A stretch of DNA of 64,000 nucleotides, taken from positions 1 to 64,000 of the forward strand of contig JAFGJM010000026.1 in assembly GCA_016929095.1 (NCBI GenBank), read 5' to 3'. Below are positions 9,558 through 51,998 of this stretch, one piece after another. Each line of letters begins with the position of its first letter. The stretch's first letter is position 1. The translations under genes were made by a program, and so were the position numbers. A model generated the notes under the pieces. It had not been told where the DNA came from. It made no database searches and saw nothing but the letters and a program-made list of their open reading frames with translations. Source of the stretch: Anaerolineales bacterium (GTDB lineage: Bacteria; Chloroflexota; Anaerolineae; Anaerolineales; UBA4823).

Positions 9558-10181
9558 TTATTTCTCCAAATCCAGTAAATAATTTCTTATATCATCAGAC
9601 AAACAGTGTGATTGAATGTAATCCAAAACACATATCTTATATTCTTCAATTGTTTTGAAATTCTCTCTAATAAAATCATGATCTACCAGTTTTCCCCTCC
9701 GTAATCCCATCCATTCGCGGTAATTCGAGAATTCCCAATCTTCCGGCAATTTTACTAAACCATCTTTTACAGGATTAGCGTGAATATAAATGCACATATT
9801 AAGTAACTGTTCATATTCTATTATGGGTTTACTCCGAAACTGTCCTTGAAATAGTGAACCAACGCGGTTGAATCGCTTATTGATGCCTTTGGTGTAGGAT
9901 ACGCCTAATTGCATCATTCCCTTTGAAACCTTTGAGCTAAAAGTATTGGGGTTTTCTAAAAAATCTGATGTATGATTACCTTTGATCCTCACTAGCATAT
10001 GATAATGTGTCGGCATTAAGCAATATGCGATAATATCTAAATGATGGCAAAGGTAGTTTTTTATACCTTGTAGAAAATAAAGGTAATTACTGTATTCAAA
10101 GAATACAGTCTGGCGGTTGTTGCCACGATTGTACAGATGGTAATACTGATCTGATAAAAAAGGAAAGTATCTTCGAGGCAT
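9558..10181 (-). mobile_element. REP-associated tyrosine transposase / IS200-like Y1_Tnp family
   Basis: YYHLYNRGNNRQTVFF...YCLMPTHYHMLVRIKG...YIHANPVKDGLVKLPEDWEFSNYREW. Confidence 0.93.
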
Positions 10182-25910: not shown

Positions 25911-26774
25911 ATGAACATTGAACGGGTGGTATGTATTCGAAAAGAACTCGATTTTTACGAGACTTCGAACCTATTAGAAATCTGGCAATTGCACGATCAT
26001 GATGAATGGACAGATGAGGCATTTGATGCTATCCGTCAAATTCTAATATCAAGGGGAGTAGAGTTGCCCTCTTTTGAGGATAGGAAAGAAGCTGATAAGC
26101 ATCTTGATTGTGCGAATGAATATGCTAAAGATGATTTCCTTCAATTGGCATTGAATGAATGCAATATGGCTCTCCAATATGCGCCTCATTATGCAAAAGT
26201 GCATTTTTGTACAGGGATTGTATTAGATAGCATGGATAATTTAGATGAAGCAATGATTTCTTACCAGGAAGCGCTTTGTCTTGATCCGGATAATAAAGAC
26301 GCACAAGATTTTTTACGTCGTGTAAAAAATGAACGAACACGGAAATTCACTACCGATGAAGATCGGAATTGTGCGGCTATTGCGCATTTCGGGGTTATAT
26401 TTCCATTGTTCGGTTTTCTTATTCCAATTTTAATTTGGACCATCCAAGAAAAGAGATCCCATTATGTTGCTTTTCAATCTCTTCAGGCGTTGTTTTATCA
26501 ATTGCTGTCCATACTTTTTTTATTGCTATCTTATAGTTTTTCAAAGACCATAACAATTATTGGTAAGATATATATCTCTGCAGCCCTCAATCCCGGTCAA
26601 ATAACAAAAATTGTAGAAAACATCACGATAATTGGCTTATGCATTATTTTGCTTTTTCTCTTGGTATATATTGTTTATGGTATTTATGGGGCTATTAAGG
26701 TTATGTTTGGTTTCAATTTCAAGTATTTGATTATTGGCAATCTTGTTGAACGATATTGGAAGAGAGAAATTTAA
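25911..26774 (+). CDS. TPR-containing protein with C-terminal DUF4870-like membrane domain
   Basis: TPR (AKVHFCTGIVLDSMDNLDEAMISYQEALCLDPDN) followed by HFGVIFPLFGFLIPILIWTIQEKRSHYVAFQSLQALFYQ. Confidence 0.78.
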   Translation: MNIERVVCIRKELDFYETSNLLEIWQLHDHDEWTDEAFDAIRQILISRGVELPSFEDRKEADKHLDCANEYAKDDFLQLALNECNMALQYAPHYAKVHFCTGIVLDSMDNLDEAMISYQEALCLDPDNKDAQDFLRRVKNERTRKFTTDEDRNCAAIAHFGVIFPLFGFLIPILIWTIQEKRSHYVAFQSLQALFYQLLSILFLLLSYSFSKTITIIGKIYISAALNPGQITKIVENITIIGLCIILLFLLVYIVYGIYGAIKVMFGFNFKYLIIGNLVERYWKREI

Positions 26775-27923: not shown

Positions 27924-28225
27924 CTTGCGGAGCTTTGGACCTATCTACACTCACCCCACCGGAGAATGTGCACGCTACGATTGAAGCGGTGAGGGAATTT
28001 GGAAAATTCTGAATAATTTTATAAGGAATCCAGGAAATGAGGAAACCAGGAAAATTTCGATAAGGAATGCTGGAAGGTAGAAAAAATTTTTATAATCTGA
28101 CCATTTTTAATAATATATTTCATATAGGCGGGTTCAGTGTATTGACAATTACTATTATTGTATTATAATAAGCAAAATTGCGCAAAATACGCATATAAAG
28201 GCATTATAATACAGGAAAACTCATC

Positions 28226-29512
28226 ATGTTAATCGAATTTAGCGTCGGAAATTACCGCTCTTTCAAAGATCCGGTCACGTTTAGTATGGTGGCAGCTAAA
28301 ATAACCTCACAAGATCCTCAAATCGATGAAAATAATATTAATGTTATTGATAAACATTTAACTTTATTAACAACCTCGGCAATATATGGGAACAATGCCA
28401 GTGGTAAGAGCAATTTATATAAAGCAATTACTTTTATGAAATGGTTTATTCTTAATTCTTCCAAAGAAACTCAATCGGATGAACCAATAAAAATCGATAC
28501 TTTTCGGTTGAGTGAGGAAACTGAAAATAAACCAGCTTTTTTTCAAATGGTGTTTTTGATTGATAATATTAAATATCGGTATGGATTTGAAGTAACAAAT
28601 GAAAAAGTAACCTCAGAATGGTTATTTTATACGCCAACAATAAGAGAGGGCTTGTTATTTTTACGAGATGATAACGGCTTTAAACTTTCACGAACATTTA
28701 AAGAGGGGAATAAATTAGAAGGAAAAACTCGAATTAATGCATTGTTTCTTTCAGTTGTTGCTCAATTTAATGGGCAGATATCTAATAAAATAATTAATTG
28801 GTTTCAAAGAGTGGGAACTATTTCTGGAGTAGATGATACAAGATATCGAGGTTTTACAATTGGTAGTTTTGCTGAGGGACGATATAAAAATGAAATTTTA
28901 GAACTAATAAAGAAGCTTGATATCGGTGTAAAAGATATCAACATTGAAAAATTAGAAAAAGCGCAAATAAGTTTCCATAAAGATATTTCTGATGATATTA
29001 AAAAAATGATTTTAAAAGATATCGAAAAAGGGGGATCAGTATATGCGATCAATACAAAACATACCAAGTTCAATGAAAAAGGTATACCAACTGGTAATGA
29101 AATGTTTGGTCTAGACATGGAATCAAATGGGACCCAAAAATTATTTTTCCTTGCTGGGCCTATTATTGATACACTTTCTAAAGGCAAAATATTAATAATT
29201 GACGAATTTGAAGCAAGATTAAATCCATTGATTACTAAAGCTTTAGTTCAACTTTTCAATTCAATTGATACTAATCTCAATCGGGCTCAACTGATTTTTA
29301 CTACTCATGACATAAATTTACTCTCTAAAGAACTTTTCCGGAGAGATCAAATTTGGTTTATTGAGAAAGATAGTCGAGGCGCAAGCCACTTATTTTCTTT
29401 AGCTGAATTAAAAGTTCGCAACGATGCATTGTATGAAAAGGATTATATTCAAGGTAAATATGGTGCAATTCCATATCTGGGCAATATTCGAAATATTGTA
29501 TGTGAGGAATGA
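28226..29512 (+). CDS. AAA family ATPase (AbiLi/RloA-like, OLD-type)
   Basis: MLIEFSVGNYRSFKDPVTFSM; Walker A YGNNASGKSNLYKAI; Walker B ILIIDEFEARLNPL. Confidence 0.88.
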   Translation: MLIEFSVGNYRSFKDPVTFSMVAAKITSQDPQIDENNINVIDKHLTLLTTSAIYGNNASGKSNLYKAITFMKWFILNSSKETQSDEPIKIDTFRLSEETENKPAFFQMVFLIDNIKYRYGFEVTNEKVTSEWLFYTPTIREGLLFLRDDNGFKLSRTFKEGNKLEGKTRINALFLSVVAQFNGQISNKIINWFQRVGTISGVDDTRYRGFTIGSFAEGRYKNEILELIKKLDIGVKDINIEKLEKAQISFHKDISDDIKKMILKDIEKGGSVYAINTKHTKFNEKGIPTGNEMFGLDMESNGTQKLFFLAGPIIDTLSKGKILIIDEFEARLNPLITKALVQLFNSIDTNLNRAQLIFTTHDINLLSKELFRRDQIWFIEKDSRGASHLFSLAELKVRNDALYEKDYIQGKYGAIPYLGNIRNIVCEE

Positions 29513-30120
29513 TGGGGAAATCATATCAGTATAGACAAAATTCTCGATATCGACAGCGTGATGTTGATACTCGTGAAATTCGCCAAAGGTTTCTTATTGT
29601 ATGTGAAGGAGGAAAAACCGAGCCGAATTATTTTATTAAATTCAGAACAAATAAAACGGTAATCAATATTGAAGGGCTTGGATGTAATACTATAAGTTTA
29701 GTGACTAAGGCGATTGAGTTAATGAAAAATGATGACTACAATCAAGTTTGGTGTGTTTTTGATCGGGATATTTTTCCTCCTGAAATTTTTAATGCAGCAT
29801 TTGAATTGGCATCTAGGAATGGAATCAAAATAGCCTATTCAAATGAATCATTCGAACTTTGGTATTTTCTTCATTTTGATTATTTGGATACCGCATTAAC
29901 ACGAGATGATTATTGCAAAAGGTTAAACAAATATTTAGGAAGAAAATACGAGAAAAATGATGAAAATATGTATGAAGTTCTTTTAGCATATCAGCCTGAT
30001 GCAATTCGCAATGCAAAAATATTATTGAAACAATACAATCCATCGAATCCGGTGAAAGATAATCCCTCTACAACCGTGCATCTATTAGTTGAAGAATTGA
30101 ATCGGTTTAATTTCTTATAG
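29509..30120 (+). CDS. RloB family protein (AbiLii-like, TOPRIM-like)
   Basis: FLIVCEGGKTEPNYFIKFR...VWCVFDRD...NESFELWYFLHFDY; overlaps the ATPase by 4 nt. Confidence 0.88.
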   Translation: MMGKSYQYRQNSRYRQRDVDTREIRQRFLIVCEGGKTEPNYFIKFRTNKTVINIEGLGCNTISLVTKAIELMKNDDYNQVWCVFDRDIFPPEIFNAAFELASRNGIKIAYSNESFELWYFLHFDYLDTALTRDDYCKRLNKYLGRKYEKNDENMYEVLLAYQPDAIRNAKILLKQYNPSNPVKDNPSTTVHLLVEELNRFNFL

Positions 30121-30124
30121 GAAA

Positions 30125-30973
30125 TTATATCGGCACCCAAAATTTTCCAAACCCAAACATGGACAACCCCCCGCAGGTAAAAAATAATAATATCCCTAAT
30201 GCGATCAATACATAATCTCGTTTTTTATAGTGGAGCTGCTCCAGCCATACCCGCGGACCAACACCAAAGGCGCGCAGGTCCATGGCATCGATGATGTCTT
30301 CGCTGCCGATGATGGCGTGGATGGTGACCGGTACGATGAGCGGCGCCATTTTGCGCACCTGGGCAATCAGCCCGCCGCGCAGATTCTCCAATTCATAGCC
30401 TCGCGCCCGCTGGGCATCCATAGTCATCATGAAATCTCGCCCAAAGGTGGGGATGAAGCGCATGGTCAGGTCCATGGCATAAGCGATTTTGTCCGACATG
30501 CCCAAACCGCGAAAGATGATTCCGTATTGCGCCGGGTTGAGCGAATAGGGGATCAGGATGGTCATGCTTGCCAGGCTGGACACGCGTAAAAAGATCCCCA
30601 GCGAATAGAAAGCTTTTTCCAGGGTGACATTGATTGCCGGCTGCCAGCCGAAAATGGTGAAATTTGCCTGTAAGCGGGTAATTAAGTGCTCGCTTTCGTA
30701 AACCTCCATGCCGCCCCGCCCGGTGAGAAAAGTGAGCGCCGAATAGAAAATGCCAAAGACGGCGATGAACATCAGCGGGCGGCGCATTTCACTCACCCGG
30801 ATACCCGAGCCGATCAAGATCACCAGTGCAATGAACGCAAACACCGCCAGGTAGCGTACATCCCAGAAAAGCAGAGTGCATGCCAGAAAACAGGCGTAAA
30901 AAATCAGCCAGGCTCGTGGATCGAACCATTGGATGATAGATTTTCGGATACGGTATCGCCAGGTGACTAACAT
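30125..30973 (-). CDS. ecfT: Energy-coupling factor transporter transmembrane protein EcfT
   Basis: Five-helix membrane protein with AQRARGYELENL (A-R-G motif) and second ARG-like motif AMDLRAFGVG. Confidence 0.88.
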   Translation of the reverse strand: MLVTWRYRIRKSIIQWFDPRAWLIFYACFLACTLLFWDVRYLAVFAFIALVILIGSGIRVSEMRRPLMFIAVFGIFYSALTFLTGRGGMEVYESEHLITRLQANFTIFGWQPAINVTLEKAFYSLGIFLRVSSLASMTILIPYSLNPAQYGIIFRGLGMSDKIAYAMDLTMRFIPTFGRDFMMTMDAQRARGYELENLRGGLIAQVRKMAPLIVPVTIHAIIGSEDIIDAMDLRAFGVGPRVWLEQLHYKKRDYVLIALGILLFFTCGGLSMFGFGKFWVPI

Positions 30974-51234: not shown

Positions 51235-51810
51235 ATGAAATACAATCCCAACCATCAACGAAAATCGATTCGCCTGAAAGGATATGATTACACCCAAACG
51301 GGCGCCTGTTTTGTCACCATGGTTACCTGGCAGCGCGAATGTCTGTTTGGTATTGTTGATGCGAACCAAATGAGGTTGAACGAATTTGGCAAAATTGTCA
51401 CCGCAACATGGGAATGGTTGCCGGCGCAATATCCGTATGTCGAATTTGGCGCATGGTGCGTCATGCCCAATCATGTTCATGGGATTATCATCATTAATGG
51501 TAGGGATGCGTTTCCGGGTAGGGATGCGTCGCGACGCATCTCTACCGTCGATTCGCGACGCGCCCCTACAACCATTGATTCGCGTCATGATCAAATGGAT
51601 ATAAAAATCAAACCCCTCGGTCAATTAATTGGTGCCTTCAAAACCGTATCCGCCAAACAAATAAATATTCTGCGAGATTCAATCGGCGTTCCGGTTTGGC
51701 AACGAAATTTCTATGAACATATCATCCAGAATGAAAAGGAAATGCAACGCATTCACACATATATCCAAAACAATCCCCGCAATTGGAAAAACGATAAAGA
51801 AAATCAATAA
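51235..51810 (+). mobile_element. REP-associated tyrosine transposase-like (Y1_Tnp) gene with internal REP insertion
   Basis: GACFVTMVTWQRECLFG...FGAWCVMPNHVHGIIIING...LGQLIGAFKTVSAKQIN...VWQRNFYEHIIQNEKEMQRIHTYIQNNPRNW. Confidence 0.88.
51518..51545. repeat. REP-like palindrome inside the RAYT reading frame
   Basis: GTAGGGATGCGTCGCGACGCATCTCTAC, one mismatch pair. Confidence 0.85.
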
Positions 51811-51926
51811 TTCGTTCTTGACATAAAATTATCGTATAAACCCAAATACGGTTTTATCTTTACAGCCTAATAATGGAATTGCAAAGATCGTAATTATCAT
51901 TGTCCCACCATATAAAACAATAACAG

Positions 51927-51998
51927 TGAGCGCGGAAGGGCTCGAACCTTCAACCAATGGCTTAAAAGGCCACTGCTCTACCATTGAGCTACGCGCCC
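51927..51998 (-). tRNA. tRNA-Lys (anticodon TTT)
   Basis: Reverse complement GGGCGCGTAGCTCAATGGTAGAGCAGTGGCCTTTTAAGCCATTGGTTGAAGGTTCGAGCCCTTCCGCGCTCA folds as cloverleaf with anticodon loop CTTTTAA; CCA not encoded. Confidence 0.93.

What the first reader, a model, noticed from the sequence alone, without database searches (positions are those of the whole stretch)
28226..30120. AT-rich ATPase + RloB/TOPRIM-like pair, candidate anti-phage module
Seen: two overlapping ORFs (4 nt). The first is an OLD/RloA-type AAA ATPase (GNNASGKS, IIDEFEARLNP). The second is RloB-like (CEGGKTE, FDRD), compatible with a TOPRIM-like acidic triad. By eye the segment is clearly more AT-rich than its neighbours and sits between unrelated housekeeping genes, as if acquired horizontally. 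Established: RloA/RloB-type pairs are linked to AbiL and resemble ATPase-TOPRIM systems such as PARIS. Inference: this is a two-gene abortive-infection-type system in a Chloroflexota background.
Basis: partly seen in the sequence, partly recalled or inferred. Interest (0 to 1): 0.66.

Follow-up and report, generated by a model that had tools for sequence, protein, structure and literature searches.

The report
Ordinary AbiL-type phage-defence gene pair
Two overlapping AT-rich genes in a Chloroflexota genome are a clear member of the known AbiL (RloA/RloB) anti-phage family, inserted where a close relative carries a different gene; the family is widespread and was first described in dairy lactococci, so the find is real but ordinary.

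Summary
Window 28226-29512 (+) encodes a 428-aa OLD/ABC-type ATPase and 29509-30120 (+) a 203-aa RloB-family protein, joined by an ATGA overlap behind a perfect sigma-70-type promoter match. PADLOC calls them AbiLi (E 3e-98) and AbiLii (E 8e-31); Pfam calls AAA_21 and RloB. GC is 0.314 against 0.48 around it (z about -5.4). In the one held genome of the same genus the pair is absent and an URO-D-like gene lies between the same two neighbours; the window keeps only that gene's 3' end, so this is an insertion or replacement. Of 60 relatives only four keep an intact pair; some sit beside BREX or type I restriction genes, and distant ones lie on plasmids and prophages. In 81 of 82 homologous loci the ATPase gene lies directly upstream. 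AT-richness is typical of the family (75 of 77 pairs are AT-richer than their flanks). PARIS membership fails (no DUF4435). The TOPRIM link of RloB has consistent motif order and topology but was statistically weak in my tests. Verdict: a new member of a known kind, most likely an ATPase-gated toxic nuclease acting by abortive infection. Low interest.

The parts
28142..28169 (+). putative promoter of the pair: TTGACA - 16 nt - TATAAT, 56 nt upstream of the ATPase start
   Evidence: 12 of 12 consensus positions; consensus match only, no expression data; the total number of promoter-like sites equals the shuffled expectation
28226..29512 (+). abiLi (rloA-like): 428-aa OLD-family ABC-type ATPase; Walker A GNNASGKS, signature-like ESxGTQK, Walker B LIIDEFEARL, TTHD
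   Evidence: PADLOC AbiLi E 3.2e-98; Pfam AAA_21 E 5.3e-43; model pLDDT 89 matches Rad50 and PtuA, best E 3e-10
29509..30120 (+). abiLii (rloB): 203-aa putative nuclease effector; E33-G34..E38, D85-R-D87, S111/E116/W118/H122
   Evidence: Pfam RloB E 3.1e-47; PADLOC AbiLii E 8.4e-31; key residues invariant or nearly so in 61 sequences; model pLDDT 88
27938..28013 (+). 3' remnant of an URO-D-like gene that is intact at the same place in the same-genus genome; marks the left edge of the insertion/replacement
   Evidence: 34-35 of 45 nt and 11/20 aa identity to the end of L031:5028-6116, 0 of 2000 shuffles as good; intact gene

Best explanation
The pair is an AbiL abortive-infection system (AbiLi + AbiLii, equivalent to RloA + RloB), acquired horizontally as a two-gene cassette. 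Most likely mechanism: the OLD/ABC-type ATPase forms a multimeric sensor that binds RloB and keeps it inactive; when it meets a phage-derived trigger it releases or activates RloB, a metal-dependent nuclease with a probable TOPRIM-like core (E33, D85, D87, plus E116 and H122), which cuts an essential cellular nucleic acid, perhaps tRNA as AriB does in PARIS, and stops the infected cell before phage release. Shown here: gene identity, pairing, conservation, patchiness, defence context of relatives, ABC-ATPase fold. Shown elsewhere for homologues: AbiLii of F. nucleatum is toxic in E. coli (PMC3985639); an RloB:AAA pair of C. algidicarnis passes toxicity-neutralisation (PMC10440598). Inferred: trigger, gating, nuclease activity, target, and phage defence by this copy.
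For: Family hits for both genes. The Lactococcus prophage proPhi7 'abortive phage resistance' pair hits the same two models and its ATPase aligns over nearly its whole length at 29% identity. 81 of 82 collected loci keep the ATPase directly upstream, mostly overlapping. Relatives in the same host family lie beside BREX (PglX, PglZ, BrxL) and type I R-M. More distant pairs lie on plasmids and in a P2-type Klebsiella phage between the replication gene and portal. Patchy distribution and absence at the same place in the same-genus genome.
Against: No anti-phage or toxicity test of this copy. Foldseek of the RloB model finds no significant solved homologue; the best match is a TOPRIM protein (DnaG) but at TM 0.24. 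hhalign to OLD-TOPRIM reaches only 5.6% probability, where AriB-like against OLD gives 86%. In a 2014 test AbiLi did not neutralise F. nucleatum AbiLii (PMC3985639), so simple antitoxin gating is not shown to be general.
Confidence: 0.9

Rival explanations
1. It is a PARIS (AriA/AriB) system: the ATPase senses anti-restriction proteins and the second protein is the DUF4435 tRNase.
For: Same two-gene ATPase + TOPRIM-like layout; the ATPase also matches the PADLOC AriA model, E 8e-40; relatives sit next to BREX and type I R-M, where an anti-restriction sensor would make sense.
Against: AbiLi beats AriA by about 190 bits. The second protein has no DUF4435 hit and is RloB. DUF4435 is absent from all 38 genomes searched of the host family.
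Confidence: 0.02
2. A toxin-antitoxin module kept as an addictive passenger rather than for phage defence.
For: An RloB:AAA pair passes toxicity-neutralisation (PMC10440598); pairs are common on small plasmids.
Against: The family was found by phage resistance in Lactococcus (AbiL, cited in PMC10440598 and PMC3985639); relatives sit in BREX and R-M loci and a P2-type phage. The two readings overlap.
Confidence: 0.07
3. A chromosomal gene pair inherited vertically with a housekeeping role.
For: Sits between metabolic genes; the nearest tRNA is 22 kb away and no neighbour tested is an integrase.
Against: Absent from the same-genus genome at the same place and intact in only four of 60 relatives; GC anomaly.
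Confidence: 0.01

Closest known systems
AbiL (abiLi/abiLii) of Lactococcus lactis; also called RloA/RloB
   Same: Two overlapping or abutting genes, OLD/ABC ATPase then RloB-family protein; both PADLOC models hit; proPhi7 pair aligns with 29-30% identity.
   Different: Diverged in sequence; chromosomal in Chloroflexota rather than on a plasmid or prophage. No difference in architecture found.
C. algidicarnis RloB (TOPRIM_OLD D44):AAA (D29) toxin-neutraliser pair (PMC10440598)
   Same: Same two families; experimentally tested as toxin and neutraliser.
   Different: No phage test of it is reported in the text read; not compared at sequence level here.
PARIS (AriA/AriB)
   Same: ATPase plus small TOPRIM-type effector; the ATPase matches the AriA model, but weaker than AbiLi.
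   Different: Effector is RloB, not DUF4435; no significant profile match between RloB and AriB-like proteins.
Septu / retron PtuA-PtuB and Gabija GajA
   Same: ATPase of the same fold class (Foldseek hits to PtuA).
   Different: Effector is RloB, not HNH (Septu); the effector is a separate protein and there is no UvrD-like helicase partner (Gabija).

Membership tests
AbiL | AbiLi-type ATPase | tested here: met
   PADLOC PDLC02335 E 3.2e-98, protein residues 1-422
AbiL | AbiLii / RloB-family second protein | tested here: met
   PADLOC PDLC02337 E 8.4e-31; Pfam PF13707 161.7 bits against cut-off 31.5
AbiL | two genes adjacent in one operon, ATPase first | tested here: met
   4-nt overlap; same order in 81 of 82 loci
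AbiL | abortive infection / phage resistance | not testable with these tools
   needs plaque assay; known for the lactococcal type member
PARIS | DUF4435 (PF14491) effector with AAA_15/AAA_21 ATPase | tested here: not met
   only RloB found in the effector; no DUF4435 in 38 genomes of the family including this one
TOPRIM nuclease superfamily (RloB) | conserved E after strand 1 and DxD after strand 3 of an alternating beta-alpha core | tested here: met
   E33 directly after strand 26-32, D85/D87 at the end of strand 79-85 in the model; conserved in 58-61 of 61 sequences
TOPRIM nuclease superfamily (RloB) | significant fold or profile match to a TOPRIM protein | tested here: inconclusive
   Foldseek best hit DnaG E 2.9e-3 but TM 0.24; hhalign to OLD TOPRIM 5.6% and AriB-like 3.7%, OLD motifs in register, negative control 0.5%, positive control 86%
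Gabija | GajA with fused TOPRIM plus GajB helicase | tested here: not met
   428-aa ATPase without a second domain; no helicase gene beside it

The most novel reading that the evidence does not exclude
RloB effectors are a strongly diverged nuclease class whose invariant S-x-x-x-F-E-x-W-x-x-L-H block (S111-H122) builds an active site different from AriB and OLD, so that AbiL systems cut a different target from PARIS.
Probability: 0.25. Interest if true: 0.35.

Novelty: new member of a known kind. Interest (0 to 1): 0.15.

Why it matters
It adds a clean, intact AbiL example in Chloroflexota with a counterpart site lacking the pair in the same genus, and shows that AbiL pairs are common in Chloroflexota and Cyanobacteriota, far from the lactic acid bacteria where the family was named. 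The molecular target of AbiLii is still unsettled in the papers I could read, so an intact, well-delimited pair could serve in such work, but any of hundreds of others would do as well.

Tried and rejected
PARIS membership rejected: no DUF4435. Vertical housekeeping pair rejected by presence/absence. Target-site duplication or terminal repeats: the only pair at the edges is a 13/14-nt inverted match (27998-28011 / 30138-30151), whose right arm lies in the cbiQ coding end, and is probably chance. Solved-structure sequence search for RloB found nothing meaningful. Fold comparison of RloB was inconclusive. tRNA-Lys at 51926-51998 is 22 kb away and not linked. The phylogeny of RloB has weak deep support and does not fix the donor; the window lies in a mixed Chloroflexota-Cyanobacteriota part.

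Full report
Observation. ORFs 28226-29512 and 29509-30120 (+) exist as described and share ATGA. Their GC is 0.310 and 0.322, against 0.48-0.52 for the genes on either side; no stretch of the same length outside the pair falls below 0.380. A TTGACA-16-TATAAT site stands at 28142-28169, 56 nt upstream of the first gene.

Identity. The first protein is AAA_21 in Pfam (E 5e-43) and AbiLi in PADLOC (E 3e-98, 327 bits; the next model, AriA, scores 136 bits). The second is RloB in Pfam (E 3e-47) and AbiLii in PADLOC (E 8e-31). NCBIfam gives no specific name for either. The pair annotated as abortive phage resistance in Lactococcus prophage proPhi7 hits the same two models; its ATPase aligns with ours over nearly its whole length at 29% identity and its RloB at 30% over 96 aa. 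A pair on a 3.9-kb E. coli plasmid behaves the same way.

Host and site. The window lies in a 3.9-Mb, 61-contig assembly. In G001, the only held genome of the same genus, the same neighbours (85-90% protein identity) flank a 362-aa gene that I read as URO-D-like from its sequence (a family name from memory, not tested) instead of the pair. The window keeps the last part of that gene at 27938-28013; the match is better than in any of 2000 shuffles. The best matches to that gene elsewhere in this genome are only about 30% identical, so it seems lost here. The pair was therefore inserted with, before or after deletion of that gene. The stretch is contiguous in G001, so the absence there is not an assembly gap.

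Distribution. Of 60 relatives, four carry intact pairs (G002, G010 twice, G028, G032); G034 is cut by a contig end, G036 holds only a 132-bp remnant, and G041's hit is marginal. A scan of one genome per species found 393 relatives by two short patterns, of which 80 were kept, mostly Cyanobacteriota and Chloroflexota. In 81 of 82 loci (80 plus 2 viral contigs) an AbiLi homologue lies directly upstream. In 75 of 77 measurable pairs GC is below that of the flanks, median difference -0.086: low GC is a habit of the family, so on its own it does not date the transfer.

Context of relatives. G028's pair lies inside a BREX locus (PglX on one side, PglZ and BrxL on the other) and G002's beside a type I restriction operon. 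Distant pairs occur on plasmids of Bacteroidota, Pseudomonadota, Actinomycetota and Cyanobacteriota, and in a Klebsiella Peduoviridae phage between the replication gene and portal; published work describes a defence hotspot in P2-like phages (PMC9122126), and I did not check that this is the same position. OLD-ABC modules as frequent BREX companions are described in PMC12839542.

Structure. The ATPase model (pLDDT 89, pTM 0.87) matches Rad50, SMC heads and PtuA (E 3e-10 to 1e-8), so it is an ABC-type, not AAA+, ATPase. The RloB model (pLDDT 88, pTM 0.81) has alternating strands and helices with E33 just after strand 1 and D85-R-D87 at the end of strand 3, the order expected for TOPRIM (from general knowledge). 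Foldseek gives no convincing solved match. Profile comparison puts the CEG motif on the OLD EG motif and FDRD on its DxD, but at 5.6% probability; the same method gives 86% for AriB-like against OLD and 0.5% for a negative control. A published HHpred analysis relates RloB to OLD_TOPRIM (PMC10440598). E38, D85, S111, E116, W118, L121, H122 and T188 are invariant in 61 diverse RloB proteins, E33 in 60 of 61.

Mechanism. Published tests: AbiLii of F. nucleatum inhibits E. coli growth, without rescue by its AbiLi (PMC3985639); a C. algidicarnis RloB:AAA pair was validated as toxin and neutraliser (PMC10440598). In PARIS the ATPase is a hexameric sensor and AriB a two-metal tRNA nuclease (PMC12409363). 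I infer the same logic here: ATPase sensor and gate, RloB toxic nuclease, infected-cell arrest. Trigger and target are unknown.

Verdict. A real, intact, horizontally acquired AbiL system; a new member of a known kind, with no unusual part.

Noticed in passing
G000:C47:90165-101443 (L153:166-11444): The same genome holds a defence island with BrxD and BrxHI (BREX), GajA-GajB (Gabija) and ZacA-ZacB homologues in a row.
   Followed up: partly
window 25911-26774: A second AT-rich gene (GC 0.35) with TPR repeats and DUF4870, just upstream of the glycerol-3-phosphate-dehydrogenase-like gene; in G001 an ABC-transporter ATPase gene stands upstream instead.
   Followed up: partly
L038:7318-7449 (G036) against L035:3649-5581 (G032): Within one related genus the AbiL pair is intact in one species and reduced to a 132-bp remnant between similar neighbours in another, showing loss as well as gain.
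   Followed up: partly
L151:1644-3630: AbiL pair in a P2-type Klebsiella phage, between the replication gene and portal.
   Followed up: no
window 9558-10181 and 51235-51810: Two ORFs whose N-termini look like REP-associated (Y1) transposases; the first is AT-rich, GC 0.34; not tested by HMM.
   Followed up: no
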